Shown here: one piece after another, positions 23,603-59,282 of the stretch | Position numbering within the stretch: position 1 is the stretch's first letter | Layout: each line of letters begins with the position of its first letter | NCBI RefSeq assembly: GCF_028618695.1 | Contig: NZ_JAQIVI010000034.1 | Coordinates: 1 to 64,000, forward strand | Length of the DNA: 64,000 nt | DNA from: Natrinema soli | GTDB taxonomy: Archaea; Halobacteriota; Halobacteria; Halobacteriales; Natrialbaceae | Direction of reading: 5' to 3' | Position numbers and translations under genes: made by a program | Notes under the pieces: model-generated | Seen by the model: only the letters and a program-made list of their open reading frames with translations | The model's database searches: none | Told to the model about the DNA's origin: nothing

Positions 23603-23643
23603 GGTGTTGTTCGCCCCTCTAAGAGGGGTAGAGGGTTTGAAAG
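23603..23643 (+). promoter_or_regulatory. Hairpin-SD leader 1
   Basis: GGTGTTGTT, a perfect hairpin CCCCTCT-A-AGAGGGG, and the ribosome site GTAGAGGG ending 8 bases before ATG 23644. First of twelve related leaders, all on the plus strand. Confidence 0.8.
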
Positions 23644-24111
23644 ATGTCGAGACAGGAATCGGTCAGTCGACTGGCGACCGCACAGGCACTCGAGACGTCG
23701 GTAAGCATTGAGGAGCGATTCCCGGCATGGGATTGTGAGCAGGGGAACGTCCGTCCGTGGGCGCTGGGCCGACAGCAGTGTGTCCTCTCGTTGGTTCGGT
23801 TCATTGTCGAGGAGATCGACGAGGCGACGTTCTCGACGCCGATGGAGGTGACGATCGCACCGACACCGGTGTACCAGCCATCGGCGAGCTGGCACGACCG
23901 CTTCGGCGGCACGTACCAAGTGGCCGTCTACCCAAACATGAATCCAGACTGGGGATCGATCGAAACTGAAGTCCCAACGCTCGAGGACGCACTCGAGGTC
24001 GCAGAAACCGTCTGCAGTGACCTCGAGGAGCAATACGATCTGCTGACGGACGATGAGCGAGTGAACGGCGAGGTCGCCCTCTCGTCGCGGGGACCGAAGC
24101 CAATCCACTGA
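23644..24111 (+). CDS. Island protein 1, unknown function
   Basis: 155 aa, acidic. Residues 1-30 carry SRLATAQALETSVSIEER, the middle has RFIVEEIDEATFSTPMEVTI and PVYQPSASWHDRFGG, and the end has a helix VPTLEDALEVAETVCSDLEE. It has no membrane segment, signal or cysteine motif. The start is fixed by leader 1. It is the first gene of the leader-bearing island, and all neighbours to 33.8 kb are on the same strand. Not a family I recognise. Confidence 0.75.
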   Translation: MSRQESVSRLATAQALETSVSIEERFPAWDCEQGNVRPWALGRQQCVLSLVRFIVEEIDEATFSTPMEVTIAPTPVYQPSASWHDRFGGTYQVAVYPNMNPDWGSIETEVPTLEDALEVAETVCSDLEEQYDLLTDDERVNGEVALSSRGPKPIH

Positions 24112-24143
24112 GTCGAAAGCTTCGCAACGAACGCACAGCCGGT

Positions 24144-24185
24144 GGCATTGTTCACCCCTTTGAGAGGGGTTGGAGGAGATCACAG
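24144..24185 (+). promoter_or_regulatory. Hairpin-SD leader 2
   Basis: GGCATTGTT, the arms CCCCT/AGGGG around TTGAG, then TTGGAGGAG and ATG at 24186. The ribosome site here is the canonical GGAGG. Confidence 0.75.
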
Positions 24186-24431
24186 ATGGACAAAGAACAT
24201 ATTCCCGGATACCTGCTGTGGGACGCGTGGAGCTGTTTCAGAAGCATCGACGAGGATCAGTTGAGCGAGAAAGATCGAGAGAGAAACGTTGATGGAGTGG
24301 CACTCCTTGAAGACGTATCGCTCTTGGAGAGTGGAGGACGCTCAGAATCCCTAGGGTCCAGCACGGCCGGGCGATTGGCCAGCCAAGCAATTGGCCCCGC
24401 CCGCCCGATACCCTTTTGGGTATGGATATGA
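24186..24431 (+). CDS. Island protein 2, unknown function
   Basis: 81 aa starting MDKEHIPGYLLWDAWSCFRS directly after leader 2. The first 55 residues are acidic and plausible. The last 25 (Ala/Pro/Trp-rich) overlap the mazEF operator palindrome and may be non-native sequence brought by a frameshift or fusion. Function unknown. Confidence 0.5.
   Translation: MDKEHIPGYLLWDAWSCFRSIDEDQLSEKDRERNVDGVALLEDVSLLESGGRSESLGSSTAGRLASQAIGPARPIPFWVWI
24408..24423. promoter_or_regulatory. Palindromic operator of the mazEF-like pair
   Basis: ATACCCTTTTGGGTAT is a perfect inverted repeat 20 bp before the antitoxin ATG, overlapping the expected TATA position (GGTATGGATATGATATG follows). Antitoxins of this fold normally repress their own promoter through such a site. 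Binding itself is inferred. Confidence 0.55.
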
Positions 24432-24442
24432 TATGAATATGT

Positions 24443-24712
24443 ATGGGCGAGGTAAAGAAACGACGTGTTGGCGACCGCGGGCAGATCACTCTCCCGAAGG
24501 AACTGCGCGAAGAATTTGACATTGGCGGCGGTGACGAGATAGAAATCCGAAAAGAGTCGGGGAAAATTGTTATCGAGAAACCGATCACTCGGGACGATCT
24601 AGCAGCCGGGTATCGTGCGCGGGCCGATCAGCTTCGAGACCTCCATGAGGAGATGGATGGCGTTTCGCAAGAGGCTGACGAGTATCTCGGCGACGTCCCG
24701 GACTGGGAATAA
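24443..24712 (+). CDS. AbrB/MazE-type antitoxin
   Basis: 89 aa. The N-terminal swapped-hairpin fold is clear: VKKRRVGDRGQITLPKELRE, then EFDIGGGDEIEIRKESGKIV, followed by a C-terminal acidic helix (RADQLRDLHEEMDGVSQEAD) that would block the toxin. Its TAA is directly followed by the toxin's ATG (24713), so the two are co-translated. A 16-bp palindrome lies upstream. It probably stabilises the replicon as a toxin-antitoxin pair. Confidence 0.88.
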   Translation: MGEVKKRRVGDRGQITLPKELREEFDIGGGDEIEIRKESGKIVIEKPITRDDLAAGYRARADQLRDLHEEMDGVSQEADEYLGDVPDWE

Positions 24713-25069
24713 ATGGAGGTACGCCGGGGAGACATCGTGATCGTTGAGCTCAACCCGACGAAAGGATCGGAGCAGCGGGGGACGCGACCATGTCTTGTCG
24801 TCCAGAATAACGTCGGGAACGAAAACGCACCCACAACGATCATCGTCCCGTTTACGACGTCGTTTGATGACGAGTTGTATCCGTTCGAAGTGCTCATAAC
24901 GGCCGATGAAAGCCACCTTCGCGAGGACTCCGTCGCGATGTGCAGTCAGATCCGAACTGTGTCGATCGAACACCGGATCAAAAACGTCGTCGGATCCGTC
25001 CCAGATGAGCGGATGAATGAGGTTGATAGCGCACTCGAGTATAGTCTCGGGTTGCGCGGCTCGTGGTAG
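24713..25069 (+). CDS. mazF: MazF/PemK-type endoribonuclease toxin
   Basis: 118 aa. VRRGDIVIVELNPTKGSEQR, GTRPCLVVQNNVGN, TTIIVPFTTSF and SVAMCSQIRTVSIEHRI show the complete MazF barrel with the RGDI, R-P and Q-I-R-T motifs of the active site. It starts immediately after the antitoxin stop. The family cleaves mRNA at short sequence motifs and is held inactive by the antitoxin. Confidence 0.93.
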   Translation: MEVRRGDIVIVELNPTKGSEQRGTRPCLVVQNNVGNENAPTTIIVPFTTSFDDELYPFEVLITADESHLREDSVAMCSQIRTVSIEHRIKNVVGSVPDERMNEVDSALEYSLGLRGSW

Positions 25070-25619: not shown

Positions 25620-25967
25620 ATGTCTACATTATCATCAACACATCCGCTCGAGCGACTTGAACCGACCCAGCGGACGCTCCGACGTGCCCAGTACGAAGCC
25701 TTCGAGTTCGAACTTGTCGCGCAGGGCGTCCTCGTTCGCAACGCCAGTCACGCAAATCCCGAGGATCACGAGTATCTGGTCACGATCGAGGACGGCTTGC
25801 CGCACAGCTGTCCGTGTCCAGCAGACGAACACTACCAAGGTGCATGCAAACATCGGGTTGCAGTCGCGATCCGAACGTCCGTTCTCGAGGCTGCACGCAA
25901 CGCACAGCGGATTCGCGAACTCGAGGCTTGCGGGGTGCAGGCCACAGCGAATCCACCAGCGCCGTGA
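25620..25967 (+). CDS. SWIM zinc-finger protein
   Basis: 115 aa. The SWIM signature CPCP-x8-CKHRVAV lies near residues 63-80, preceded by EYLVTIEDGLPHS as in other haloarchaeal SWIM proteins. The first 25 residues are a charged helix (LERLEPTQRTLRRAQYEAFE). SWIM domains bind nucleic acid or protein partners. Such stand-alone SWIM genes are common on haloarchaeal plasmids; the target is unknown. Confidence 0.85.
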   Translation: MSTLSSTHPLERLEPTQRTLRRAQYEAFEFELVAQGVLVRNASHANPEDHEYLVTIEDGLPHSCPCPADEHYQGACKHRVAVAIRTSVLEAARNAQRIRELEACGVQATANPPAP

Positions 25968-26123
25968 GTTACCCCACGAGAGGGAGACAAAGAACGATCC
26001 GCATGATGTTCTTTTCACCCAACCTGGAGCGAACTATCTGTTCCCTACACTTGCGTATCTATCGGAGGTTCAAATGATTATTTCACCAAAAGCCGTTAGT
26101 ATAGATACGATGTGAGATTTAAT

Positions 26124-26678: not shown

Positions 26679-27010
26679 TAGTCGCTTTCCCTGTACTAAA
26701 CGGCAACTACGTGTGCATACGTACCTTTTTGCTGCGGGTCCTCGCTCCTTCGGTCGCTCGAACCGCTTGCAAAAATCTACGTTAAAAAGGCCGCCTTCGC
26801 AGGCTTCGCCCGCTCCGGCGGTGAACCGCTCGCTTCGCTCGCGGATGCTGGAAGCGGTAACTCCTTGGCCTGTACTTGCCGTTTGTCGGGTAGTTACAGA
26901 GAAAGGGTATGGGAACTTTTCTATGACACCCTGCCACGAGGTAAAATGACACTAAATCGTGGGGTAACTTCGCCCGAGTCGACCAGCATCCGCACGAACG
27001 TACCGCACGT

Positions 27011-27050
27011 GGTGTTGTTGCTCCCTCGAGAGGGGTGGAGGGTATCACAG
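27011..27050 (+). promoter_or_regulatory. Hairpin-SD leader 4
   Basis: GGTGTTGTTG, the hairpin CTCCCTCGAGAGGGG, then TGGAGGG and ATG at 27051. This decides the start of the following gene against the longer open frame from 26865. Confidence 0.8.
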
Positions 27051-27695
27051 ATGTCACGAGCAGACGAGACGGCAGCACAGCCAACGGAGACACCTGATGA
27101 AGCACAGTCCATCGGTGAGACAACGCCACTTCCACGACGGTTCCTCGCAACTGCTAGCGGGCCGGTCGACCGGATCACTGACTACGGTGACGAGACGACC
27201 GAGCGTGTTCACGCCGACATCTCAATCGAGTACTCGATCGAGACGCTCGAAGAGTTCGCCACGTTCTGGAGCTTCCGCGATTACCGCAGCTGGAAGCGAG
27301 CGGCTCTCGAGGCTCTCCTCGAGAGACAGGAACCCGACGCTGTGACGTACGCCGTTGACGAGGATGACCTCGAAAAGTGGGACGTCACGGTCGATGGACG
27401 TGTTGAGGCATTTGCGGGACTCGTCGAGACGATGGCTGACTACACAGGACGAGATCCTTCTTGTCGAGATGCACTCCCTCATCAGATTGCAGCTCGGATT
27501 AACGCGCTCACCGATGGTCGCCAAACGACTGACGACGTTCTCACGGAGTTCGCTGATGAGTTGCACCATGCAGAGCTGTGGGGGCTTGGAGCGCATCTTG
27601 CGCTCCTGAACGTCAGACATGCCCACCACGAGCCGATTGAACAGCAGGCCGCAACGCTTGCTCGCACTCTCAGTGACGACGGGGGTGAGGAATGA
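27051..27695 (+). CDS. Island protein 4, unknown function
   Basis: 214 aa, acidic and largely helical. MSRADETAAQPTETPDEAQS is a disordered start; the core contains IEYSIETLEEFATFWSFRDY and RSWKRAALEALLERQEPDAV, and a C-terminal part (TEFADELHHAELWGLGAHLA). It has no catalytic motif I know. The stop overlaps the next gene's ATG (AATGATGATGA), so the two form an operon. Confidence 0.75.
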   Translation: MSRADETAAQPTETPDEAQSIGETTPLPRRFLATASGPVDRITDYGDETTERVHADISIEYSIETLEEFATFWSFRDYRSWKRAALEALLERQEPDAVTYAVDEDDLEKWDVTVDGRVEAFAGLVETMADYTGRDPSCRDALPHQIAARINALTDGRQTTDDVLTEFADELHHAELWGLGAHLALLNVRHAHHEPIEQQAATLARTLSDDGGEE

Positions 27696-28503: not shown

Positions 28504-28569
28504 GGTTCGGTTCCTTGGACTCCCTCCATCGCAGGCTCCACAGCGACCGATTCGACCGTGACAGCACGT

Positions 28570-28610
28570 AGTGTTGTTCCACCCTTGAGAGGGGTGGAGG
28601 GTTTGAACCG
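28570..28610 (+). promoter_or_regulatory. Hairpin-SD leader 5
   Basis: AGTGTTGTTCC, the arms ACCCTT/AGGGGT around GAG, then GGAGGG and ATG at 28611. Confidence 0.8.
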
Positions 28611-28931
28611 ATGAACCAGTTCAGAACCATCGATCGAGTGGTACAGCGATCCGAATACGACGAAACTGACACGGGCCGAAAACTGCGCTTGCGTGCGGAA
28701 GCCGAGGTGATTGCTCGTACAGAGTGGTTGGTTCCCGACGGCGGGACCGTAGCCGAGGCTACTCAGAGTGAGTCCGAGAAACCGACGTACACGCGGCATG
28801 TCGAACCGCCGGAACAGGGTGGGAAGGCGTACATCCGATGTACGTACTGCGAACGCGAGCTGCTGGTCGAACTCGGTGGACAGGACAATCTGTCGCATGC
28901 TCCCGGCTGCCCGGAGCGTGAGTCGCGATGA
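28611..28931 (+). CDS. Island protein 7, zinc-ribbon protein
   Basis: 106 aa. The N-terminal half is charged helix (MNQFRTIDRVVQRSEYDETD). The C-terminal half holds IRCTYCERELLVELGGQD and HAPGCPERES, a CxxC plus His/Cys pair suggesting one zinc site. It overlaps the next ORF by four bases (ATGA). The start follows leader 5. Role unknown. Confidence 0.75.
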   Translation: MNQFRTIDRVVQRSEYDETDTGRKLRLRAEAEVIARTEWLVPDGGTVAEATQSESEKPTYTRHVEPPEQGGKAYIRCTYCERELLVELGGQDNLSHAPGCPERESR

Positions 28932-29513: not shown

Positions 29514-29627
29514 CACGAACGCTCGATCAGCAGTGCAGTGAGTCGTGCGAACTGTAGACTCTGTCTTAGTCTCGATTGTACCATTTGGGTTCTCTGTAGC
29601 CCTCTGCGTTTCCGACGCGATCGACGT

Positions 29628-29689
29628 GGTGTTGCTTACCCCCTCAGAGGGGTGGAGGGCGCGTTACAAGCTCTCCAAGACTGATCATC
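29628..29689 (+). promoter_or_regulatory. Hairpin-SD leader 6 (long form)
   Basis: GGTGTTGCTTA, the hairpin CCCCCTCAGAGGGG, then TGGAGGG, followed by about 30 extra bases before ATG 29690. The same long spacing occurs before both ArdC-like genes and after leader 10. Confidence 0.7.
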
Positions 29690-30038
29690 ATGCCACTCCT
29701 AGACGTATACGAACACACATTTGACGAAGACGTCCCCCTCTCTCGACAACCACCCGTCGGAGACGGGGACAGCGAGGAACAGATACTGCCCTACGACCGC
29801 CACAACGCAGACAGCAACGCCGGGGAAGGCCGATCCTCACCATTATGACGAACGGCTCGGCTGGCACGAACAGACGATGTCTCGGCAGGACGTCCGTGAT
29901 GAACTGATTAACCGGCTCGCACGACCTGCATCACTGACGACGAATCAGAGTCATGCTGTTCCTATTGAGAAACTTGATACGTTCAGGGTGAAGCCAACGC
30001 GGGAACTACGAACAGGTCGTCGGACCGGCGAGAGGTAA
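29690..30038 (+). pseudogene. Frameshifted island gene 11
   Basis: From ATG 29690 the frame gives MPLLDVYEHTFDEDVPLSRQ, an acidic stretch to DSNAGE, and then a stop at 29848. The natural continuation (ADPHHYDERLGWHEQTMSRQ, DVRDELINRLARPASLTTNQ) is in the frame open to 30038, so one indel near 29820-29830 separates them. Unknown family. Confidence 0.55.
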
Positions 30039-31372: not shown

Positions 31373-31677
31373 GCAAAGTGAATAGATACGACTCTACTTA
31401 GGATTTGAACCGAATAGGGTTACTCGCTGCGTGGATCTCCTCAGTGCTGGTTGCTGTCTGCGAGTAAGCGTACCGCTGGGGTTCGATGTCTCGAGAAACG
31501 CCGGCCAGAGACCGATGTTAGAGCCCCACCCCTCACGTGGTGTGTCCATTGGGGAAGCTGTCTGAAATTTGGCAGCGATACTACGGACCCTCCTACTGGA
31601 CTCTGGAATCAACTAGTGGTGTTTATCGCCCCAGAAGCAGTGAAGGGGCTGATCAGTTGTCCTCTTCGGAGTTATCG
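31373..31677. other. Intergenic region before tfb
   Basis: About 300 bp with no supported gene. It presumably carries the tfb promoter. It has no GGTGTTGTT hairpin leader, unlike most island genes. Confidence 0.45.
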
Positions 31678-32607
31678 ATGGCAACGAGAGACATCTACAC
31701 GACTACGTGTGACGACGGCGTTCAGACGACTCCAACTACCTGTCCAGACTGTGGCGGCAACGTTCGAAGGACTGACCACGAGAGGATCTGTGAGGACTGT
31801 GGACGTATCCTCGAGGACACCCAACTAGATCGGGGACCAGACTGGGGTCGACATGACGAGCAGGGATCGAAGAAACGGACCGGCGCCCCGCTGACACCGA
31901 CACGCCACGATCGAGGCCTCTCCACCGAGATCGGGTACACGCAAGACGGACATGGAAATGCACTCTCGAGCACGAAGCGCCGACAATTGAACCGGCTGCG
32001 TCGCGAACAATCCCGTGCCCAGTGGCAGTCGAAAGCTGAACGGAACCTCGCCTATGGGCTCGGTGAAATCCGGCGAATCGTCGCACGTCTCGGCCTCGCA
32101 CAGAGTATCCGAGATCAGGCGTGTTCGCTATTCCGAACTGCCCAGTCTGAGCAGCTCTGTCGCGGACGATCGCTCGAGGCGGTGGCTGCAGCCAGTGTCT
32201 ACGCAACCACTCGGTGTAACGGACTCGGACGATCACGGGCAGAAGTCGCAGCCTGTGCGCGCTGTGATCAGACGGGACTCACCAACGCCTACACCGTGAT
32301 GAACGTCGAACTCGAGTTACCGACACAGCCGATTACAGCAACAGATCGAATTCCGAGGCTTGCGACAGAACTTGAGGTCCCAGATCAGGTTCGTCGACGA
32401 GCGCTCGAGCTCGCACAGACGGCACACGAACGCGGGCTGATGATCGGCTGCCGGCCGAGTGGCGTCGCAGCGGGCTGTCTCTATCTCGCTGCCCAGCGAG
32501 TCGGATTCTGTCTCTCTCAACAGCGGATCGCCGATATCGCAGGAACATCACCGAACACGCTCCGCAGTCGGCGAGACGAATTACTCGAGATTGAAGCCGA
32601 AGCCTGA
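31678..32607 (+). CDS. tfb: Transcription initiation factor IIB (TFB)
   Basis: 309 aa from ATG 31678. The N-terminal zinc ribbon is TCPDCGGNVRRTDHERICED followed by CGRILEDTQLDRGPDW. The B-finger/linker segment follows, then two cyclin-like repeats (from about 125 and 220; QSIRDQACSLFRTAQSEQLC, GRSLEAVAAASVYATTRCNG; PDQVRRRALELAQTAHERGL, RPSGVAAGCLYLAAQRVGFC). It recruits RNA polymerase to TBP-bound promoters. Haloarchaea carry several TFBs with different promoter preference. This one lies inside the leader island and is divergent at the B-finger, so it could be dedicated to island promoters (inference). Confidence 0.9.
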   Translation: MATRDIYTTTCDDGVQTTPTTCPDCGGNVRRTDHERICEDCGRILEDTQLDRGPDWGRHDEQGSKKRTGAPLTPTRHDRGLSTEIGYTQDGHGNALSSTKRRQLNRLRREQSRAQWQSKAERNLAYGLGEIRRIVARLGLAQSIRDQACSLFRTAQSEQLCRGRSLEAVAAASVYATTRCNGLGRSRAEVAACARCDQTGLTNAYTVMNVELELPTQPITATDRIPRLATELEVPDQVRRRALELAQTAHERGLMIGCRPSGVAAGCLYLAAQRVGFCLSQQRIADIAGTSPNTLRSRRDELLEIEAEA

Positions 32608-32662
32608 CCGTCGCAACCCGGATGAGACACTTGTAACGGAGCCGCTCGAGCGCTCCCCCGAG

Positions 32663-32726
32663 TGTGTTTTTCTTCCCCCAAAGGGGTGAGGGGCGTTCCA
32701 AGAAGGAGCGTCCGTCGTCAAGAACG
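32663..32726 (+). promoter_or_regulatory. Hairpin-SD leader 7 (long form)
   Basis: TGTGTTTTTCTT, the hairpin CCCCCAAAGGGG, then TGAGGGG, with about 27 further bases to ATG 32727 of the frameshifted ArdC-like gene. Confidence 0.7.
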
Positions 32727-34430: not shown

Positions 34431-34528
34431 TAGCCTGCTCTCGACAGACTGAGAGGGACGGAAATGCCTCCACTACCTGAAGTAGTCCGAAGAAATATTA
34501 CCGATGTGGAAAGAACAGGTGTGCCTAA

Positions 34529-35923: not shown

Positions 35924-36069
35924 CATCTCATAGATGAGAGATAAACCTTAATAATGATTGTGGTGTATGTCAATAACTGTGATATTTTCGCTACGGTGAA
36001 GGGATTGAACGTCGGCTCTAGGCTGACCGAAGTACATATAACCTGACGAATGGATACTCCGACGGAAGT

Positions 36070-37018: not shown

Positions 37019-37085
37019 GCCTATCACCACTTCACAGGCAAGATAAATGAAGAAACTCGTTGCGGCCGAACAGCTGGCTCCTTCT

Positions 37086-41213: not shown

Positions 41214-41283
41214 ACCAGGAACCCGGATGGCGAGACTCTCTCGCTGCTCCAAAATGACCGTCAGATCAGAGTCAACGTCTCGT

Positions 41284-41322
41284 GGTGTTGTTTCTCTCCT
41301 CGAGAGGTGAGAGGATCTCACG
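41284..41322 (+). promoter_or_regulatory. Hairpin-SD leader 8
   Basis: GGTGTTGTTTCT, the hairpin CTCCTCGAGAGG, then GAGAGGA and ATG at 41323. Confidence 0.75.
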
Positions 41323-41532
41323 ATGTCTGAAACTGATTGCACTGACGAGCCACTGACGCCAGCACAGCGCCTCGAGTCATCGAATCCCCGGCTCATTGAT
41401 GCGGGAATCGCGACAATCACCGACATGGAGACACTCCAGGCGTGTTTCGCCTATGAAAACCAGCACCAACAACGCCTTCCGATCCTCAAACTGCTAGCTC
41501 AGCGAGCTGAAGAGCTTCGCGAGGAGTCGTGA
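41323..41532 (+). CDS. Island protein 16, small acidic protein
   Basis: 69 aa: MSETDCTDEPLTPAQRLESS, NPRLIDAGIATITDMETLQA, CFAYENQHQQRLPILKLLAQ, RAEELREES. Predicted helical throughout. The start is fixed by leader 8. Unknown family. Confidence 0.7.
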   Translation: MSETDCTDEPLTPAQRLESSNPRLIDAGIATITDMETLQACFAYENQHQQRLPILKLLAQRAEELREES

Positions 41533-43826: not shown

Positions 43827-43829
43827 TTC

Positions 43830-47987: not shown

Positions 47988-48011
47988 TCACTTTTTCTAA
48001 CCCTCTGCGTC

Positions 48012-48990: not shown

Positions 48991-49261
48991 AGACTGATCG
49001 GCACGACCAATGGTATCTGTTGTTGGGATGTCACAACGATGTCGTTTCCTCGAGAACATGCTGCGGGTACCGCCGCTTCATCACGCTCGCCGAGCGAGTT
49101 TCCGAGCAGGTAAACCGACACCCACTCACTCATAGCTCACTTCTTAGGCCAGTCCGACTATCCGTTCTTTATGGGTCTTCTCATCTGCTGGTCCGTATTG
49201 AGACCATACTGCGTACCGTTCCCTAGAGAAGGAATTACACACGTATGTATGTAAGAACAAC
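48991..49261. other. Intergenic region
   Basis: About 270 bp at the boundary between the IS66 remnant and the proline-use cluster. Nothing is supported. Confidence 0.5.
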
Positions 49262-50038: not shown

Positions 50039-50070
50039 GATTTGAATCGTCGCCGTACCTACGCATAAGC

Positions 50071-50087
50071 GTTCGGAATGTGTGAAC
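50071..50087. promoter_or_regulatory. Candidate IclR operator, site 1
   Basis: GTTCGGAATGTGTGAAC, an inverted repeat GTTC-N9-GAAC, 33 bp upstream of the iclR start. Sites 2 and 3 differ from it by one and three bases. Confidence 0.6.
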
Positions 50088-50255
50088 AGGCTTGGACGGG
50101 TCGTGATGACGGTTGTCGTTTAGTAGTTCGTTTCACAGCCCGAGGAATATTACTGGATGAATTATTTTATATTTTATACTACTGGTCGTGTGTTGGCAAT
50201 ATTTCTGTCCGTCTATCACTAGTAATCGATCGTGCCGTCTCCCGGTCGACCCGCC

Positions 50256-50272
50256 GTTCGGAATGCGTGAAC
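50256..50272. promoter_or_regulatory. Candidate IclR operator, site 2
   Basis: GTTCGGAATGCGTGAAC, 16/17 identical to site 1, GTTC-N9-GAAC. Confidence 0.6.
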
Positions 50273-50347
50273 CAGTCGCGTCGTTCGGTAGTTGCAACTG
50301 TTACCCAGTGTGTGCCATACGGTGACGGACCACTCTTCAAACGGTTC

Positions 50348-50364
50348 GTTCACGTATTCGGAAC
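50348..50364. promoter_or_regulatory. Candidate IclR operator, site 3 (inverted)
   Basis: GTTCACGTATTCGGAAC; its reverse complement GTTCCGAATACGTGAAC matches site 2 at 15/17. Three copies in 300 bp make chance unlikely. The rest of 50039-50543 has no gene, apart from a short Cys-containing frame near 50480-50550 that I could not support. Confidence 0.55.
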
Positions 50365-50543
50365 GCCGATCCCGCGGCCGCTTCCGCGATCGGCCTACGA
50401 CGGTCGGTCCTACAGGCGGTTCGGCATCGATCGGATCGGTCGCCGATCGGCGCTAATCGGCACCGCAACGATCAGTCCGTCCGCACCGCTGGCACCACTC
50501 GCCCGAGACGCGGGCTCCTCGCCCGCAGAGGGGACAGGTCGTC

Positions 50544-52079: not shown

Positions 52080-52212
52080 ACCGTATCAGTCACGGATCGT
52101 CAAGGAATAACCACGGCCTCCCATGGTCGGGACCGACTCGAGCGGGATCCACGGTGACCGTATTCAGTATGTTTATGTTGCTCACACCGAAACGGACGAG
52201 CAGAACCGACAC

Positions 52213-52941
52213 ATGAGCAGCACGAGTTCTACGGCGACGACGACGGGGGCAGACGGCACGCGACTCGCGCTCGAGATTTGGCATCCCGACTGCTGGGGGT
52301 TACAGGCGACCGAGGTGGTCGACGCCGGACTACTCGTCCACACCGTCCACCGAACCGTCGAGGAAACGGTCAAGGGCCACTTCACCGTCTACGCGGACAC
52401 GACGGCGCAACTCGACGAGTTCGTCGAATTCGCGAACGAGTCGCCGCTGACACACTCGACGGTCGAACTCGGCCAGCGCCCGACCAGTGCAGCACCGGAT
52501 CCCGGGAACGCGACCCGCGAACTCTTCGTCGAGTACGAGCCGGAACACAGTATCAGCGACACGCTCGTCTCGCACGGCTTTATTCACGACGCGTCGGTGC
52601 GCGTCGAACGCGGGCTCGAGCACTGGCCGGTCTTCGTCGCCGACGGTCGCCCCGAGATTCAGAGCCGACTCGAGAGCATCCGAGCCGAGACCGACGCAGA
52701 GATCTCGATCAGCAAAATCGCCTCGCCGGCGGGCGACTCGTCGGGAACGCCGGACCGGCTCGATCGGCTGACGCCCCGACAACGGGACGCGTTCGAACTC
52801 GCCTGCGAGCACAACTACTACGCGTGGCCGCGCGAGATCGACACGCGCGAACTCGCAGACGAACTCGGCGTCTCGAAGACGACGCTGCTCGAGCACCTCC
52901 GGAAAGCCGAAGCGAAACTGCTCAACCCGGACGAGTCCTGA
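52213..52941 (+). CDS. HTH-10 (bacterio-opsin-activator-like) regulator
   Basis: 242 aa from ATG 52213 (frame open from 52123). The N-terminal sensor part is beta-rich (LALEIWHPDCWGLQATEVVD, GHFTVYADTTAQLDEFVEFA), and the C-terminal HTH-10 domain is RLTPRQRDAFELACEHNYYA, then WPREIDTRELADELGVSKTT and LLEHLRKAEAKLL. It sits between the aldehyde dehydrogenase and proline dehydrogenase genes and is most likely their activator, analogous to other haloarchaeal put clusters. Confidence 0.85.
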   Translation: MSSTSSTATTTGADGTRLALEIWHPDCWGLQATEVVDAGLLVHTVHRTVEETVKGHFTVYADTTAQLDEFVEFANESPLTHSTVELGQRPTSAAPDPGNATRELFVEYEPEHSISDTLVSHGFIHDASVRVERGLEHWPVFVADGRPEIQSRLESIRAETDAEISISKIASPAGDSSGTPDRLDRLTPRQRDAFELACEHNYYAWPREIDTRELADELGVSKTTLLEHLRKAEAKLLNPDES

Positions 52942-53029
52942 TTGACTCCCCGATATTAATTCCTGACCGTGGCGGATGAATGTTTTGGTCGGGTATCGAT
53001 TTAGGGGGTTTGCGTGCCACCGACACGGT

Positions 53030-53869
53030 ATGATCCCCCCAATCACAAGCCGATTCGTCGCCGGAACGACCGTGCCCGGCACGCTGGATCACGTCTCCGA
53101 CTGTAACGAGTCGGGGATGGGTGGCATCGTCAACCTCCTCGGCGAACACTATCACGACCGCGAGCCCGCGGACGCGGACGCAGACGAGTACTGCCGTCTC
53201 GTTTCCGAACTGGGCGCTCGCGACCTGAACGGGTCCGTCTCAGTCAAACCGTCCCAGATCGGGATCGACGTCGGCCCCGAGGTCTTCACGGAGAACTTCG
53301 AACGGATCGTCGATGTCGCGGCCGAAGAAAACGTCTTCGTCTGGTGTGATATGGAAGACCACACGACGACCGACACGACCTTAGACGCCGTCGAATCGAC
53401 AGCCCAGAACCATCCCCACGGCGTCGGCGTCGCCATTCAGGCGAACCTCAAACGCACGGGCGACGACCTGCGCCGCCTCGCCGATGTTCCCGCGGCGGTC
53501 CGACTGGTTAAGGGCGCCTACGACGAGCCGTCCTCGGTCGCCTACGAGCGGAAAGAAGACGTCAACGAGGCGTATATCGAGCATCTCGAGTTCCTGTTCC
53601 AGGAGTTCGATCAGGGCATCGCGGTCGGAAGCCACGATCTGACGATGCTCGAGACTGCGATCAACCTTCACAAGGAGCACGACACCCCCTTCGAGATCCA
53701 GATGCTCATGGGCGTTCGCGAGGACGCCCAGCGCGACCTCGCCGCGGAGGGCTACGAAGTCAATCAGTACATCCCTTACGGCGACAAATGGATGCAGTAC
53801 TTCTACCGTCGGATCCGCGAGCGAAAGGAAAACGCCTTGTTCGCGCTTCGGGCCATCGTCGGAGTCTGA
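53030..53869 (+). CDS. Proline dehydrogenase
   Basis: 279 aa from ATG 53030 (frame open from 52976). A TIM-barrel flavoprotein with RLVKGAYDEPSSVAYERKED, VGSHDLTMLETAINLHKEHD, FEIQMLMGVREDAQRDLAAE and GYEVNQYIPYGDKWMQYFYR followed by RRIRERKENALF. The R-R-x(2)-E-R end binds proline's carboxylate in this family. It oxidises proline to P5C and passes electrons to quinone through FAD. It lies directly behind the HTH-10 regulator. Confidence 0.93.
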   Translation: MIPPITSRFVAGTTVPGTLDHVSDCNESGMGGIVNLLGEHYHDREPADADADEYCRLVSELGARDLNGSVSVKPSQIGIDVGPEVFTENFERIVDVAAEENVFVWCDMEDHTTTDTTLDAVESTAQNHPHGVGVAIQANLKRTGDDLRRLADVPAAVRLVKGAYDEPSSVAYERKEDVNEAYIEHLEFLFQEFDQGIAVGSHDLTMLETAINLHKEHDTPFEIQMLMGVREDAQRDLAAEGYEVNQYIPYGDKWMQYFYRRIRERKENALFALRAIVGV

Positions 53870-54101
53870 CTGACCCGTTTATCCATCGCGCGCGAGACGC
53901 GTTCTTCGGGTCCTACTCGAGACACGCTTCACGAGAGTTTCCCGACTCGACGGCAGCATCTCGTGGTACCCCACGGTCGACCGCTGACACCGAGTTCCCT
54001 GAGCGGCGACAGCGGCGCCACTCTCCTCGGGGCGACTAATCCACTATCAAAAAAGGGGCAAATTCGGTACGTTTATGTGTGGGTGGTAAGCACACACCTG
54101 T

Positions 54102-54248
54102 ATGCCTGAGAGTGGTTCGGTCGAATTGGTCTGGTTATTCGGACCGTTCGCCGTGTACCTAGTCATGCTCGGCGTGTACTACGTCTGGGAAGGGAAACGG
54201 GAGGAACAACTGCGGCAACGCTACGAGGAGGCAGAGCATGGCCAGTGA
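54102..54248 (+). CDS. Small membrane peptide preceding PutP
   Basis: 48 aa: MPESGSVELVWLFGPFAVYL, VMLGVYYVWEGKREEQLRQR, YEEAEHGQ. One membrane span with a charged cytoplasmic tail. Its stop lies 11 bases inside the PutP gene, so the two are translationally coupled. Small subunits of this kind accompany several SSS-family symporters; a structural or regulatory role is inferred. The upstream gap 53870-54101 holds nothing else. Confidence 0.75.
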   Translation: MPESGSVELVWLFGPFAVYLVMLGVYYVWEGKREEQLRQRYEEAEHGQ

Positions 54249-55926
54249 GGGACTGGCCGGCTCGGCCGGCGTCTGGGTGCTTGGGACCTTCGGGGTGTAT
54301 CTCCTCGTCCTCCTCGGAATCGGGCTGTACTCCTCGCAACTCATGGACTCCGTCGACGACTACGTCATCGGCGGGCGCAGCATCGGCCCGGTCGTCACCG
54401 GGTTTTCCGAACGCGCCTCCGAGATGAGCGGCTGGCTCACGCTCGGTGTCCCGAGCGATGCGTTCGGGACCGGCGTGATGGCGTTTTACAATGGGCTCGG
54501 GATGATCCCGGCCGACCTGTTCGCCTGGGCCGGGCTCGCAAAACGCCTCCGGAAGTACACGGAGATCGTGAAAGCGGTCACGTTACCGACCTTCTTCGAG
54601 ACGCGGCTGCAGGACGACACCGGCTACGTCAAAGGCGTCTCCGCGTTCGTCCTGATGATCTTCGAGGGCGGGTACGTGGGCGCACAGATCGTCGCCGCCG
54701 GGACGCTGCTCGAGGTCCTCACCGGCGTCTCGTCGGTGATCGGGATCCTCGTGGGCGGTGTCATCGTCGTCGGGTACACCATGCTCGGCGGTTACTTCGC
54801 CGTCGCGTGGTCGGACTACGTGCAGGGTGCGATCATCCTTGCCGCGTTCATCATCCTGCCAGTTATCGCGTTTACCAACTACGGGCTCCCGTTCAGCGAA
54901 CTCGCGTCCGTCGGGAGTTCCTACACCAGCGTTACGGCCGGCATGACCGGCTGGGCGGCCATCTTCGGCATCATCAGTTACGCAGCCATCGGGCTCGGTA
55001 TCCCCGGGAACCCACACGTGATGGTCCGATTCATGGGGATCAACGAGGTCAAGAACATTCGTCTCGCCGCCCTCGTCGCCCAGCTGTTCATGTTCATCGC
55101 CTACATCGGGGCTGGCTTCGTCGGGCTGTATGCACTGGTCGTCTTCGGCCAGAGCGGCATCGAGGACCCGAACAACGTCATGCCGTTGCTCACGCTCGAG
55201 TTCTTCCCCGGTGCGATCGCGGGGATCATCCTGGCGGCCGCACTCGCTGCGATGATGTCCAGTGCCGACTCGCAGCTGCTCGTCGCGACGAGCGCTATCG
55301 TCGAGGACGTCTACCACGGCTACGTTAACCCCGACGCGAGTCAGGACACGCTGGTTCGGTACTCCCAGTACGTCACGCTCGCGCTCGGTGCAGCGAGCGT
55401 CGCCTTCGCCTTCCTCGCACAGAACACGCCCATCTACACGCTCGTCCTCGACTACGCGTGGGGCGGTCTCGGGGCGGCCATCGGGCCGACGCTCATCGCC
55501 GCACTGTGGTGGAAACGGGTCACTGCGACGGGCTCCGTCGCGAGTATGATCGTCGGCACGACGACGATGATCCTGTGGACCCAGCTCTCGACCGTCCTCG
55601 AACTGCTCGGACTCATGGGTGCGATCGACGGCTCGCCGTTCCTCACGGGGCTGGTCGGTGTCTACGGGCTCTTCCCCGCGTTCATCCTCTCGACGGCGAC
55701 ACTCATCGTCGTCTCGCTGCTGACGAAGCCGCCAGAGGGCGTCGACGATCACTTCAAGTCGTTCAACAAGCCGCTCTCGGCGCTCTCGAGCAGCGGCGAT
55801 CCAACCGGGACGCCTGAGTACGTGACCGATGGCGGTCGCGATGTCGATCCGAAGGCCGTGACGGAAACGGACACCATTCGCGCCCACGTCGAAGAGAGCA
55901 ATTACTGGGACTCGGGTGAAGAATAA
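54238..55926 (+). CDS. putP: Sodium/proline symporter (SSS family)
   Basis: 562 aa with about 13 membrane spans. SSS motifs: DDYVIGGRSIGPVVTGFSER, ASEMSGWLTLGVPSDAFGTG, GYTMLGGYFAVAWSDYVQGA, GLGIPGNPHVMVRFMGINEV and AALAAMMSSADSQLLVATSA. The ASEMSGW and AAMMSSADSQLL segments hold the Na+-binding Ser/Thr residues. It imports proline for the adjacent dehydrogenases. The last 60 residues form an acidic cytoplasmic tail. It overlaps the small gene upstream and the hypothetical gene downstream. Confidence 0.93.
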   Translation: MASEGLAGSAGVWVLGTFGVYLLVLLGIGLYSSQLMDSVDDYVIGGRSIGPVVTGFSERASEMSGWLTLGVPSDAFGTGVMAFYNGLGMIPADLFAWAGLAKRLRKYTEIVKAVTLPTFFETRLQDDTGYVKGVSAFVLMIFEGGYVGAQIVAAGTLLEVLTGVSSVIGILVGGVIVVGYTMLGGYFAVAWSDYVQGAIILAAFIILPVIAFTNYGLPFSELASVGSSYTSVTAGMTGWAAIFGIISYAAIGLGIPGNPHVMVRFMGINEVKNIRLAALVAQLFMFIAYIGAGFVGLYALVVFGQSGIEDPNNVMPLLTLEFFPGAIAGIILAAALAAMMSSADSQLLVATSAIVEDVYHGYVNPDASQDTLVRYSQYVTLALGAASVAFAFLAQNTPIYTLVLDYAWGGLGAAIGPTLIAALWWKRVTATGSVASMIVGTTTMILWTQLSTVLELLGLMGAIDGSPFLTGLVGVYGLFPAFILSTATLIVVSLLTKPPEGVDDHFKSFNKPLSALSSSGDPTGTPEYVTDGGRDVDPKAVTETDTIRAHVEESNYWDSGEE

Positions 55927-56438
55927 TGAGCGAAACGCGTCGACAGCAGGCCGAGACCGCCGACATCACGGGGCAGACCCGGGAGCGTGCGAACCTGACC
56001 GTCATCGAGCCGACGGTAGCACGCGAGGACGTCGATTCGACCGGCCGTGTCGGTGCGGTCGCGTATCCATACCGCGTCTACGACGCGGTCGTGACGGTCA
56101 ACCGGCCGATAATCGCGGACCGGGACCTCGAGTACGTCGTCAGCGTCGACCGCGCTCGTCGACTCGCTGTGCGGGCCGACGTGGTCCCCGAGACCGTCTC
56201 GAGAACCGTCGATGACGTCCTCGTCGTTCCGTCCGAACTCACCGACGAGCAGGTCCGCGAGAAAGCCGAGAACGCGCTATTCAAGTGGACGCTCCGGAAG
56301 ATCGCCGTCGGTTCCGCGCCGGACGTGCAATTCGAGCAGTCGGTCAACGCTCACAAACTGTTCTGGATCGCGTCTCGGCCTGACGGCGACGTGATCGTCG
56401 ACAGCGTCCGCGGCACCGAGTCGCCGTTGGACAGCTGA
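55926..56438 (+). CDS. Conserved-looking protein in the put operon, unknown function
   Basis: 170 aa. Its ATG shares a base with the PutP stop (TAATG). VGAVAYPYRVYDAVVTVNRP, DLEYVVSVDRARRLAVRADV, VVPSELTDEQVREKAENALF and KWTLRKIAVGSAPDVQFEQS suggest an alpha/beta cytosolic domain without membrane segments. Coupling to PutP suggests an accessory role in transport or regulation. Family not recognised. Confidence 0.7.
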   Translation: MSETRRQQAETADITGQTRERANLTVIEPTVAREDVDSTGRVGAVAYPYRVYDAVVTVNRPIIADRDLEYVVSVDRARRLAVRADVVPETVSRTVDDVLVVPSELTDEQVREKAENALFKWTLRKIAVGSAPDVQFEQSVNAHKLFWIASRPDGDVIVDSVRGTESPLDS

Positions 56439-56649
56439 GAGAGCTCGGACGGCACTGGACGCTGTTCGACGTGATCGAAACCGGCCAGCCAAATCTTCGA
56501 TGTCGCCGTCGGAAGCACCGACCGCCGACTCGAGATACCCACTTCGACCGGCTGTCAGTGAATGACCTTCTCAAGGCGATTGCGTATCTACGTCCTACGA
56601 TACAGAAGTTACCAGTTTCCCACAGTGAGTGGTACGAACCGAGTCCTAC

Positions 56650-57075
56650 GGGACTTATCGCCAACTTCGGTCACGGGTTAGGACCCCCATCGGGGTCAAC
56701 GAGGACACGTATTTCCGGCGTAACTTGTACCACTTGCTCTCCGAGGATGCCATCGACGTCGGCGTCGTTGACATCGTACCCGCGGGGGGCATTCTGCGTA
56801 CAAAAGGTCTCGCTTCTATGGCCGCAGAGGCGGGTGTCTCGTTGTCTCACCATTGCGGCTTTGACCTCGGAGTGAAGACCACCGCAATGCTTCACACGGT
56901 TTCCTTGACGCCGGGTATCAACCTCCCGCCGGACACGGTCTACTATGCTTGGGATGACTACATCATCGAGAACCCGATAACGGTCGAGAACGGAGAAATT
57001 CCGGTCCCCGATGACCCCGGACTCGGCGTCACCGGCGACGAATCGAAAATCGAGAAGTACCAAATCGGCGCGTAG
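56650..57075 (+). pseudogene. Mandelate racemase/muconate lactonizing enzyme, C-terminal fragment
   Basis: The open frame RVRTPIGVNEDTYFRRNLYH, DVGVVDIVPAGGILRTKGLA, SMAAEAGVSLSHHCGFDLGV and KTTAMLHTVSLTPGINLPPD, then YYAWDDYIIENPITVENGEI is the last third of the enolase-superfamily barrel (TPI-x-x-NED, then the metal and His region). The N-terminal cap and first half are absent, so it is not functional. It is followed by IS debris. Confidence 0.75.
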
Positions 57076-57109
57076 AGTGATTTTCTCCGAATAAACAAGT
57101 CTCCACGCG

Positions 57110-57353
57110 AACGCCCTGACGGGTGTCGCGTCCGCCTCCACGAAACTGGGTGTTCGCTTCGACGACAACAACGATTCTCGCTGAATTAGGCGTGGAGCAC
57201 TCATATGAAGCAGTCTGGGACTGGGTACGTCGGCTGGCTAACAAAGGATGCAACCCACGACGGCGACGCCATTCGTGCGCGAAGCTGGTACCGAGAGTTC
57301 CGTGAAATCGTCCTAATGTGTGACGTCTATAATATCAAGTGTGCTGTGAGCTA
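57110..57353 (+). pseudogene. Composite of IS6 and IS5-like transposase fragments
   Basis: 57125-57240 reads PPRNWVFASTTTTILAELGV and EHSYEAVWDWVRRLA, an IS6-type N-terminus with shifts. From 57250 another frame reads KDATHDGDAIRARSWYREFR, EIVLMCDVYNIKCAVS and TAA, a typical IS5-like C-terminus. The two come from different elements joined end to end. Confidence 0.6.
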
Positions 57354-57499
57354 AGCAAATTTAACGCCGTATGGCGATTCACCGCGGCTAGTTAGAGAGA
57401 ACACGTACATTCGTATCGTTCAATTCAATAATTCAAGAGTTGATAGTCGATCAGGAAATTACAAGTTCCTTGATCGAATTGTAATTATCACAACTATTA

Positions 57500-58020
57500 A
57501 TACCGTAATTGTCCAGATTAGCTGATTCCAGCAGTATGCGTAGCTCTGCAACCATATTTCAGCGGTTGCTGGATCGGCGTTTCTGAAGCAATTTCCGAAC
57601 TGAGTAGTACGTTGTTTTATCTCTTTGAATAGACGTTCGACGGCATTCCGATTTCCATGTTTCTCGTATCGAAATCGGAGCCCAAGGTGATGGAGTGCAG
57701 CTTTAAGCCACGGAGCTGGATCGACGAGAAACACGGCGTCTTGGACATCGTGTTTCTCTCTCAGTTCACACAGAAACATCTCAGTAAGTTCGGTTGTACG
57801 CGTTAGATAGAGCTTGATATGGAGAAATTCGTTAGTTTCGGGATCGACAGCAGCATACAGCCAGTAGCGCTGGTCGTCGAGTTGGATCACAGCTTCGGCG
57901 AGCACAATGTGATCCGGCTGGCTTCCCGTTGTCGGCTGTAGATTGGCTTTCTGTACCCAATTATGGATCGTCGATATCGCCCGTTCGACAGCGAATCTCT
58001 CTAATTTAGAAACAGTATAT
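57500..58020 (-). pseudogene. IS6-family transposase remnant
   Basis: The minus frame (LERFAVERAISTIHNWVQKA, LQPTTGSQPDHIVLAEAVIQ, DDQRYWLYAAVDPETNEFLH, VFLVDPAPWLKAALHHLGLR, RNAVERLFKEIKQRTTQFGN) keeps most of the DDE domain, though one expected catalytic position reads AEAVI instead of DE-x-VI. The N-terminus is lost. It is nearly identical in layout to the more decayed copy at 33870. 58021-58210 is non-coding. Confidence 0.75.
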
Positions 58021-58210
58021 AAAATTGATATTTACGACAAATGGAGCTGGACACTCAATCACATCAGCTCGCACGGTGTCGCCTCTCGCTCCACAAAATC
58101 TAATTGAACGCCGCTACTAGAGCCATTGAGGCGGCTGAATTCGGGCATAGATACCTAGAATTCTGACCGCCTCGCTTTTCAGACCTTATCTGAACAGCGC
58201 CCCCCTTGAC

Positions 58211-58921
58211 TTACAAGAGATGCCGTTCACGGCGGATCTCTCCCTTCTCGACAGTAATGGTTTTGACGCTTGGCTCAAGATCGCTAGTCAGTTGTTCTAT
58301 CGCCCCACCACAAAACGCGGAGCAGCCATTCAATTTCTTCTCAGCGTTCGTATGAAGATGGCCGAGAGCAAGCCCGTCCATCGAAATCGTGCTCTCTTCG
58401 AGAATCTCCTGCAGGTGACAATCTGGATTCGGATTTCCGGTGAGCGGTGCGACCGATTGATGCATACAGAGGAGAGTCGCGACCCCGCTTGGTGGACGTT
58501 CAAAACCCAGCTGACCGTGATCCCACGATTTCTGATAGTCGATCCCATAGAGTGCGACGGCATCACCGATCACGACGGGGCGGGAGCAAAGATGGGGAGC
58601 CAACCCTGCACCACAGAACTGTTCGAGACAGACCAGTCCCTTCTTCTGTGCATGGTTGCCGTAGATGAAGTAGAACGGATTCTCGGCGTTCGCCAGTTCA
58701 GTGATACCATCATGGCACGCTTCTTCGATCGAATCCGGAATCCCGTTCATAGCATCGTTGTGGAAGATATCGCCAGTGTGAACAACGGCGTCGACACCCT
58801 GCTCGATGGCAAGGTCAATTGCAGCGTTGAATCCAGCGACAGTGTCGATCTTCCAGGAATTTTTCTTGTAACCGCCTGTTTGCTTCCCCAGATGAGTATC
58901 AGTAAGGTAGAGTAGTTTCAC
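58211..58921 (-). CDS. Calcineurin-like metallophosphoesterase (Mre11/SbcD-like)
   Basis: 236 aa with all five metallophosphoesterase motifs: LYLTDTHLG (Asp8, His10), VVHTGDIFHND, FIYGNHAQKKG, LLCMHQSV and GLALGHLHTN. It lacks the capping domain of full Mre11, so it is a minimal exo- or endonuclease-like enzyme or a phosphodiesterase. It is transcribed away from the Zn-finger/ArdC genes on its right. On a plasmid it might process DNA ends; this is inference. Confidence 0.8.
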   Translation of the reverse strand: MKLLYLTDTHLGKQTGGYKKNSWKIDTVAGFNAAIDLAIEQGVDAVVHTGDIFHNDAMNGIPDSIEEACHDGITELANAENPFYFIYGNHAQKKGLVCLEQFCGAGLAPHLCSRPVVIGDAVALYGIDYQKSWDHGQLGFERPPSGVATLLCMHQSVAPLTGNPNPDCHLQEILEESTISMDGLALGHLHTNAEKKLNGCSAFCGGAIEQLTSDLEPSVKTITVEKGEIRRERHLL

Positions 58922-58948
58922 TCGGCGGCTGACCGGGCGAACGCCTTT

Positions 58949-59173
58949 GTGTTCGATCTCGAGTACGAGGGACCAACGCCGAGCGACCTCTCAAGTGCGG
59001 CGTGTGCAGCCTGTGGAGCGAACGTCTGGATAACCAATCGTGGCCCGTTCGTAGCCGAGTACGATACTGGTGAGATCTACGGGTACTGCTCGTACGACTG
59101 TTACTTCGAGCACCGGACGCAGAATCGACTCGAGGAGATCGTCGATGAGCGGAGCGTCTTCATGCCGCCGTGA
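58949..59173 (+). CDS. Small zinc-finger protein
   Basis: 74 aa from GTG 58949. SAACAACGANVWITNRGPFV and YCSYDCYFEHRTQN contain a CxxC and a second C-x3-C, one likely zinc site. It lies 28 bp from the divergent phosphoesterase and just upstream of leader 12. It resembles the other cysteine-knuckle island proteins in style, not in sequence. Confidence 0.6.
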   Translation: MFDLEYEGPTPSDLSSAACAACGANVWITNRGPFVAEYDTGEIYGYCSYDCYFEHRTQNRLEEIVDERSVFMPP

Positions 59174-59211
59174 GCCGATTTTTCACTCGAAGTCTGGTGT
59201 GCGATGAATGT

Positions 59212-59282
59212 GGTGTTGGTCGTCCCCCTGAGAGGGGTGAGGCGCTTTCGAACAGGTGAGAGCGTCAACACGAGTGATTCCA
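59212..59282 (+). promoter_or_regulatory. Hairpin-SD leader 12 (long form)
   Basis: GGTGTTGGTCGT, the hairpin CCCCCTGAGAGGGG, then TGAGGCG, with about 30 more bases to ATG 59283. Its long spacing matches leader 7, which precedes the other ArdC-like gene. Confidence 0.75.

What the first reader, a model, noticed from the sequence alone, without database searches (positions are those of the whole stretch)
23603..59282. Twelve copies of a stereotyped hairpin-plus-Shine-Dalgarno leader in front of island genes
A module GGTGTTGTT - N2-4 - CCCC(T)/GGGG hairpin - (T)GGAGGG - N6-9 (or about 30) - ATG occurs at 23603, 24144, 25314, 27011, 28570, 29628, 32663, 41284, 41569, 42201, 42708 and 59212, always on the plus strand and mostly directly before a small ORF of unknown function. 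Haloarchaeal mRNAs are often leaderless (established), so a conserved structured 5' UTR with a strong ribosome site repeated across many genes is unusual. The 5' arm (CCCCTC) could pair with either the GAGGGG arm or the ribosome site, which allows a translational switch. The downstream proteins are unrelated, so the leader, not the genes, is what is shared.
Basis: partly seen in the sequence, partly recalled or inferred. Interest (0 to 1): 0.92.

Follow-up and report, generated by a model that had tools for sequence, protein, structure and literature searches.

The report
Repeated hairpin leaders before plasmid genes
A short repeated sequence with a hairpin sits in front of many different genes on salt-loving archaeal plasmids, pointing the same way within each cluster and lying near DNA-transfer-like and anti-restriction genes, so it may mark genes a plasmid needs when it enters a new cell.

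Summary
The repeated leader is real: 11 of the 12 sites stand (10 strong, 1 weak); 42708 does not. A model built from ten window sites (R1) finds the module in islands on Natrialbaceae plasmids. In 32 fetched stretches with two or more top hits, none mixes strands. The module ends at a start codon in 96 of 148 cases, against 3.1% of random positions.

A similar leader (T-rich element, stem-loop) precedes many genes of six other haloarchaeal ArdC regions. Its stems differ between genes yet stay complementary; 12 of 18 R1 hits there fall on it.

A model of that type (R2) scores in 135 of 292 genomes, but in the fetched examples this is nearly one stem-loop (40 of 44), so it tracks a conserved plasmid backbone: VirB4-like gene, leaders, ArdC-like gene, mostly on one strand.

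I read the island as the establishment (anti-defence) region of transfer-type plasmids, its genes tagged by a shared structured leader, probably acting as RNA. The proposed Shine-Dalgarno switch is not supported: the purine block is equally SD-like where it lies about 30-40 nt from the start. RNA against single-stranded DNA is undecided.

The parts
23599..23646 (+). leader module, class A; start codon 23644 of a 155-aa ORF (family F7)
   Evidence: R1 61.5 bits, E 2.7e-12; family has 8 members
24140..24188 (+). leader module, class A; start codon 24186 (81-aa ORF, F9)
   Evidence: R1 49.9 bits
25310..25358 (+). leader module, class A; start codon 25356 (73-aa ORF, F1)
   Evidence: R1 46.9 bits; family of 16 ORFs taken from behind leaders
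27007..27053 (+). leader module, class A; start codon 27051 (214-aa ORF, F3)
   Evidence: R1 58.7 bits; 13 family members
28566..28613 (+). leader module, class A; start codon 28611 (106-aa ORF, F0)
   Evidence: R1 57.7 bits; 19 family members
29624..29692 (+). leader module, class B, with a second hairpin; start codon 29690 (52-aa ORF, F4)
   Evidence: R1 48.4 bits; fold
32659..32705 (+). weak leader module before broken ArdC-like pieces (32787-33664)
   Evidence: R1 22.1 bits, E 0.002; similar weak hits L009 34838 and L011 29759; Peptidase_M78 match below cut-off in the piece 32993-33661
41280..41325 (+). leader module, class A; start codon 41323 (69-aa ORF, F5)
   Evidence: R1 46.5 bits
41565..41612 (+). 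leader module, class A; start codon 41610 (109-aa ORF, F6)
   Evidence: R1 55.0 bits
42197..42243 (+). leader module, class B; start of the downstream gene uncertain (GTG 42264 or ATG 42339, stop 42689)
   Evidence: R1 40.3 bits; fold z -2.8; ORF starts
59208..59285 (+). leader module, class B, with a second hairpin; start codon 59283 of the ArdC-like gene
   Evidence: R1 51.5 bits; fold
59283..60212 (+). ArdC-like protein (309 aa): ArdcN plus Peptidase_M78; last leader gene seen in the window
   Evidence: Pfam E 3.6e-4 and 5.7e-4, both just under the curated cut-offs; tblastn to plasmid genes annotated ArdC-like
24443..25069 (+). MazE/MazF-type toxin-antitoxin pair inside the island
   Evidence: Pfam
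31537..32607 (+). TFIIB-family transcription factor inside the island
   Evidence: Pfam E 6.7e-33
   Evidence: no R1 match at E<=1; core absent

Best explanation
The island is the establishment (anti-defence) region of a transfer-type haloarchaeal plasmid. Many of its genes carry the same kind of 5' leader: a U-rich GGUGUUGUU/GUUUUUC element, a stem-loop with a G-rich loop, and a purine block or SD before the start codon. The most likely working is at the RNA level: in long same-strand transcripts, each leader lets its gene be translated independently of its neighbour and places these genes under one shared post-transcriptional control, so that they can be switched together when the plasmid enters a cell. 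Shown: module, placement, co-orientation within islands, stems that differ between genes yet pair, a conserved backbone with VirB4-like gene, leaders and ArdC. Inferred: that the folded strand is RNA, that a shared factor reads it, that expression is tied to plasmid entry.
For: Placement: ATG plus ORF of 30 aa or more at the module's end in 96 of 148 modules against 3.1% of 4000 random positions; SD energy -8.6 (n=97) against -2.8 kcal/mol at random ATGs. Orientation: 0 of 32 stretches with two or more top-150 hits (136 hits) mixes strands (some stretches overlap or share a plasmid). Same leader before unrelated proteins: 139 ORFs in 31 BLAST groups. No AT-rich peak from -110 to 0 in 74 modules with dissimilar upstream DNA, while much of the module reaches 1-2 bits per position. 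Pairing kept through change in the pNG600-type leaders: 48 both-side-change cells against 14.5 +/- 2.7, score 0.42 against 0.09 shuffled and at most 0.10 slid; 14 different stem-loops in seven loci. R1 hits these leaders: 18 hits at E<=1 in six loci, 17 on the ArdC strand, 12 overlapping R2 hits. Context: ArdC within 50 kb for 60 of 69 R2 hits, 60 of 60 same strand, 59 of 60 downstream; VirB4-like gene within 80 kb for 18 of 37, 17 same strand, 15 also upstream; in R1 plasmids the 9 close VirB4 homologues on replicons with modules share the module strand. Anti-restriction-type genes behind leaders: ArdC-like, C5-methylase, Mom-like below cut-off. Parallel: pLS20 EGeRS1 (PMC8708921).
Against: No transcript data: nothing shows that the hairpin is in the RNA. 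G-U and A-C cells do not differ in the stems (46 and 44; 5 and 3), so the folded strand is not identified. In the window family covariation is weak. In one search two measures show little: pairs with a change on both sides 5 against 4.6 (303 of 500 shuffles reach it), further pair types 14 against 11.0 (17 of 500); and A7 was fitted to the structure. The class-wide synteny is mostly one orthologous leader of a conserved backbone (40 of 44 hits in L111-L140 have the same stem-loop), so 60/60 is not 60 independent cases, and R2 was itself built from ArdC-selected regions. No trans-acting factor was found. No relaxase or oriT was identified or searched for; PLSDB calls all 87 matched plasmids non-mobilizable, with MPF_T genes in 5 of 6 R1 records and 3 of 6 pNG600-type records. 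Most leader genes have no known function. Natrinema SYSU A 869 plasmid unnamed2 and Natronococcus AD-5 carry islands on both strands, the latter without a VirB4 hit.
Confidence: 0.42

Rival explanations
1. Single-strand DNA promoter: the hairpin forms in the entering single DNA strand and recruits RNA polymerase there, as Frpo does on the F plasmid, so the leader genes are expressed before the second strand is made.
For: Hairpin with changing stem and conserved loop and flank; no upstream AT-rich peak; transfer-like and anti-restriction context; Frpo precedent in leading regions (PMC11541004, passages).
Against: By eye the stems hold no TATA/BRE-like sequence and vary between genes, whereas Frpo stems carry promoter elements. 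Often one leader per gene rather than per operon. With order VirB4 - leaders - ArdC on one strand, the simplest transfer direction (transfer genes last) makes the entering strand the sense strand, which cannot be the template; PMC8708921 used the strand argument against ssDNA promoters for pLS20.
Confidence: 0.2
2. Plain autonomous ribosome-entry cassette: the leader only gives shuffled cassette genes their own translation start inside long transcripts, without shared regulation.
For: SD-like block at suitable spacing in class A; haloarchaeal distal operon genes normally overlap and may couple (PMC3986360, passages), which shuffled genes cannot do.
Against: Does not explain the near-invariant 12-mer or the stem-loop kept in leaders with a separate SD. 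In Haloferax an SD in a 5'-UTR was dispensable (PMC3986360).
Confidence: 0.22
3. Double-stranded DNA element: promoter or operator palindrome read by an element-encoded factor (TFB, TBP and HTH genes occur in the islands).
For: TFB in the window, TBP annotated in L014; EGeRS2 of p576 works through a repressor (PMC8708921).
Against: Stem sequences differ between genes while staying complementary, unlike conserved half-sites. A TATA role for the T-rich element would put the start downstream of the SD in class A (inference from usual archaeal spacing, recalled). TFB is not annotated in the stretches L010 and L012.
Confidence: 0.11
4. Priming sites for second-strand synthesis by the element's own primase.
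For: A DNA_primase_S-like gene (below cut-off) beside the transfer-like genes; pRN1 primase starts at GTG and its replicon needs a stem-loop (PMC4234260, passages).
Against: Placement tied to start codons; many copies per plasmid; GTTTTTC-type leaders lack the GTG repeat.
Confidence: 0.05

Closest known systems
EGeRS1 establishment gene regulatory sequences of Bacillus plasmid pLS20 (PMC8708921; abstract, section 3 parts 1-2 of 3 and section 4.1 read)
   Same: Repeated, hairpin-rich sequence directly upstream of the RBS of ardC and of other, variable establishment genes; no constitutive promoter found; present on several plasmid families.
   Different: EGeRS1 is 420-750 bp, bacterial, five copies on pLS20, each before an operon; this leader is about 40-80 nt, archaeal, often one per gene. 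No sequence relation was tested.
Frpo/ssi single-strand promoters in plasmid leading regions (PMC11541004, passages)
   Same: Hairpins before anti-defence genes in a leading-type region, co-oriented.
   Different: No promoter elements seen in the stem; template strand not known and geometry argues against it; the word 'archaea' has 0 occurrences in that paper's main text.
Haloarchaeal leaderless and SD-coupled gene starts (PMC3986360, abstract and passages)
   Same: Same host group.
   Different: Class A leader genes are GC-rich at -34 to -22 from the start (AT 0.39) instead of carrying a TATA box there, and the leader itself separates them from the gene upstream.

Membership tests
EGeRS-type establishment regulon | same sequence repeated upstream of ardC and other genes on one plasmid | tested here: met
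   window 59208 (ArdC-like) plus ten other sites; other plasmids
EGeRS-type establishment regulon | located immediately upstream of the RBS | tested here: met
   (R1, 96 of 148 end at a start codon); R2 leaders lie 7-74 nt before a start
EGeRS-type establishment regulon | sequence relation to EGeRS1 | not tested
   EGeRS1 not fetched; length and host differ
EGeRS-type establishment regulon | transient expression after transfer | not testable with these tools
   needs RNA from a mating
Frpo/ssi single-strand promoter | promoter elements formed by the folded strand | tested here: inconclusive
   no TATA-like sequence in stems or at a fixed place upstream, by inspection and composition; archaeal requirements on ssDNA unknown
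Frpo/ssi single-strand promoter | transferred strand is the template | not testable with these tools
   no oriT or relaxase known
Rfam family | match at the gathering score | tested here: not met
   0 matches in the window and in L105 and L109
   equally SD-like in class A and class B; the 3' arm of R2 leaders is less SD-like (-5.1, n=37)
   own arms beat swapped arms slightly for both blocks, p=0.013 and 0.0004; relatedness of modules not controlled

The most novel reading that the evidence does not exclude
An archaeal establishment regulon: haloarchaeal transfer-type plasmids carry a conserved order of transfer ATPase, array of structured leaders, ArdC, in which one folding leader (as RNA, or as entering single-stranded DNA) switches on many unrelated anti-defence genes at plasmid entry.
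Probability: 0.42. Interest if true: 0.87.

Novelty: new variant of a known kind. Interest (0 to 1): 0.72.

Why it matters
How haloarchaeal plasmids move and survive entry is, to my knowledge, little understood. The leader gives a searchable tag for candidate establishment and anti-defence genes, most of them of unknown function, and the backbone that carries one such leader occurs in nearly half of the sampled haloarchaeal genomes (135 of 292). It also offers a testable exception to the rule that haloarchaeal genes are leaderless or overlap their neighbour. Finding the factor, or the strand, that reads it would show whether archaea have their own counterpart of bacterial establishment control.

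Tried and rejected
Site 42708 and the extra hit 31614: rejected.

Viral origin: no phage match for 22.5-43.5 kb (near mode) and no exact pattern match in IMG/VR for either leader type (exact patterns only).

Strand of folding from G-U against A-C: no signal.

My own argument that the SD block is kept only where it sits at SD distance failed: class B keeps it too.

R2 as proof of many independent class-wide cases: weakened, where 40 of 44 hits in L111-L140 share one stem-loop.

A fixed upstream promoter: none. Divergent gene pairs were uninformative, because the TATA-like stretch in L105 fits the opposite gene as well.

Single-site folding z-scores are weak. RNAalifold on the window-type alignment A5 gives only three pairs. 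R2 does not find the window modules at E<=3 or E<=1, so kinship of the two leader types rests on R1 hitting R2 sites (12 of 18 overlap, 10 within 4 nt; L105 and L107 are near-copies), four weak coinciding R2 hits in L014, L054 and L075 (E 0.14-0.93) and the shared GGTGTTGTT.

Papers: searches listed no paper whose title or abstract start describes such leaders in haloarchaeal plasmids; subscription papers and preprints are not covered.
Full report
WHAT IS THERE. Eleven of the twelve sites share a form of CGGTGGTGTTGnTC, a pyrimidine arm, AGAGGGGT, a purine block (GGAGGG, AGAGG, GTGAGG) and then either a start codon at 8-10 nt (class A, seven sites) or a second hairpin and a start about 30-40 nt further on, more for the weak site (class B). 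42708 fails. The window has no held genome. Its closest plasmid records are from Natrialbaceae, best Natrinema zhouii plasmid unnamed3, 45% of the queried 21 kb covered at 90% identity.

SAME MODULE ELSEWHERE. R1, built from ten window sites, gives 77 matches at E<=1 in 334 kb of eleven related loci and 202 at E<=0.1 in 48 sources including the window. I worked on with the best 150 (alignment A4; the other 52 were dropped from later counts). Genome-wide the module is rare: 12 of 121 genomes drawn from the family of G001 reach E<=1e-4, 9 of 391 of its class reach E<=1e-5; both include genomes already known to be positive, and the scans use strict filters that lose weak copies. Hits cluster in islands. 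Of 46 fetched stretches with a top-150 hit, 32 have two or more and none mixes strands (a few stretches overlap or come from one plasmid).

PLACEMENT. In 148 distinct modules, 96 have an ATG with an ORF of 30 aa or more at index 42-47, against 3.1% of 4000 random positions. Of 150, 91 start at index 43-46, 26 at 72-77, 22 elsewhere, 11 have no ORF. Upstream DNA shows little conservation and no AT-rich peak from -110 to about -9 in 74 modules whose upstream DNA differs. The 139 downstream ORFs fall into 31 BLAST groups, many singletons short and perhaps spurious; some groups share similar first ten residues (by eye). Groups include ArdC-like proteins (14), one Mom-like protein (E 0.0067, below the curated cut-off) and a C5-methyltransferase (E 3.9e-12); most of those scanned have no Pfam match above cut-off.

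A WIDER DESIGN. ArdC orthologues occur on many other haloarchaeal plasmids at about 70% identity. Six such regions (pNG600, PHS1, pJ7-1 and three more) have, before many of the co-oriented genes, GTTTTTC or GGTGTTGTT followed by a stem of 5-8 bp around a G-rich loop, for example GAGCCTCC-AGTGGGT-GGAGGCTC or CGTCCCGC-AAGGGGT-GCGGGACG. R2, built from seven of these, gives 46 hits at E<=3 in eight sources, 45 on the + strand, none in the window (six of these loci are oriented by ArdC). On the 37 distinct rows, 93.8% of cells pair (shuffled 70.6%), 48 cells changed on both sides (14.5 +/- 2.7) and the covariation score is 0.42 (0.09 shuffled; slid at most 0.10); but pairs with a both-side change are 5 against 4.6 and further pair types 14 against 11.0. 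That alignment was fitted to the structure, so these numbers lean towards it; the different yet complementary stems in raw sequence (14 distinct stem-loops in L010 and L105-L110) do not depend on it. R1 hits 18 places in the six loci at E<=1, 17 on the ArdC strand; 12 of the 18 overlap R2 hits, 10 starting within 4 nt (L105 and L107 are near-copies).

CONSERVED ORDER. R2 matches 135 of 292 sampled genomes of the class (E<=0.01). In the 30 loci fetched from that search, 40 of 44 hits have one identical stem-loop, so this distribution mostly follows one or two orthologous leaders of a conserved plasmid backbone. For 30 R2-positive genomes chosen from that (truncated) listing, ArdC is present in 29. 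Of their 69 listed R2 hits, 60 have ArdC within 50 kb: 60 of 60 on the same strand, 59 of 60 downstream, median 12.8 kb; nine have none. For 37 of these hits (about one per array) in 24 of those genomes, 18 have a VirB4-like gene within 80 kb: 17 on the same strand, 15 of them upstream (identity to the query 25-45% in all but name only distant kinship). These are counts of a shared backbone, not independent events. The query gene on pHTUR03 matches DUF87 and, just under the cut-off, TraG P-loop; beside it lie a coupling-protein-like gene (TrwB_AAD_bind) and a DNA_primase_S-like gene below cut-off. In R1 plasmids the nine close VirB4 homologues that share a replicon with modules are all on the module strand; three of the nine are from one strain. 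The island follows within about 60 kb downstream in five (W02, W05, W06, G001 C41, G098 C4); in the other four (W01, G003 C38, G092 C44, G116 C3) it lies farther off or on the other side of a contig whose circle I could not close. Exceptions: Natrinema SYSU A 869 plasmid unnamed2 has hits on both strands, Natronococcus AD-5 has islands on both strands and no VirB4 hit. pHTUR03 carries both leader types on one strand.

WHICH STRAND FOLDS. A dsDNA operator is unlikely, because stems vary while staying complementary. RNA and ssDNA cannot be told apart: G-U and A-C cells are about equally common (46 and 44; 5 and 3). For the window family, own arms pair slightly better than swapped arms (block 1 p=0.013, SD block p=0.0004), with the relatedness of modules uncontrolled; a simpler stem score shows little and RNAalifold finds three pairs.

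HOW IT WORKS, LIKELY. The closest working parallel is EGeRS1 of pLS20: repeated hairpin-rich sequences right before the RBS of ardC and variable establishment genes, without a constitutive promoter of their own, one of which blocks read-through in its native orientation (PMC8708921, section 3 parts 1-2 and section 4.1 read). The leader here resembles that in position, gene company and lack of promoter signature; it is not shown to be related, and it is much shorter. The order VirB4 - leaders - ArdC suggests, if transfer genes enter last, that the entering strand is the sense strand, which would exclude a single-strand promoter; this rests on an unmapped oriT. An SD switch is not supported (PMC3986360). 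My working model is an RNA leader that gives each gene independent translation and shared control. The first half follows from anatomy, the second is inference.

LIMITS. 

Noticed in passing
window 25967-25977 and 26959-26969; L011 18668/18702, L012 20723/20756, L014 16949/16982, others: A second repeated element: inverted repeat AGTTACCCCAC...GTGGGGTAACT, arms often 33-35 nt apart and about 45 nt upstream of a leader; in the window and L010 the arms are 1-2 kb apart with genes between, as if something inserted in the loop.
   Followed up: partly
window 32787-33664: Broken second ArdC-like gene behind the weak leader at 32659.
   Followed up: partly
L009 about 19860 and 26005, L010 about 22265, L012 about 25085: TCTGTACTTACCG-like stretch recurs 100-200 nt upstream of leaders next to divergent or distant genes; may be an insertion end.
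   Followed up: no
window 34500-40000 and 43200-58900: Cargo between leader genes: a symporter and CoA-transferase stretch at about 34.5-38.4 kb; 43-59 kb looks metabolic by eye from predicted ORFs, not searched.
   Followed up: no
L068:16882, L075:12866: Leaders precede a C5-methyltransferase and a weakly Mom-like protein; candidate anti-restriction genes.
   Followed up: partly
L105 24431, L106 21662, L107 23638, L110 25329: Another repeated start-region motif, TTAACCAACA...TGTTGGTTAA, before one conserved small gene of the pNG600-type plasmids.
   Followed up: no
window 31537-32607; L014 21045-21587: Element-borne general transcription factors (TFB; TBP by annotation) within the islands.
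   Followed up: no
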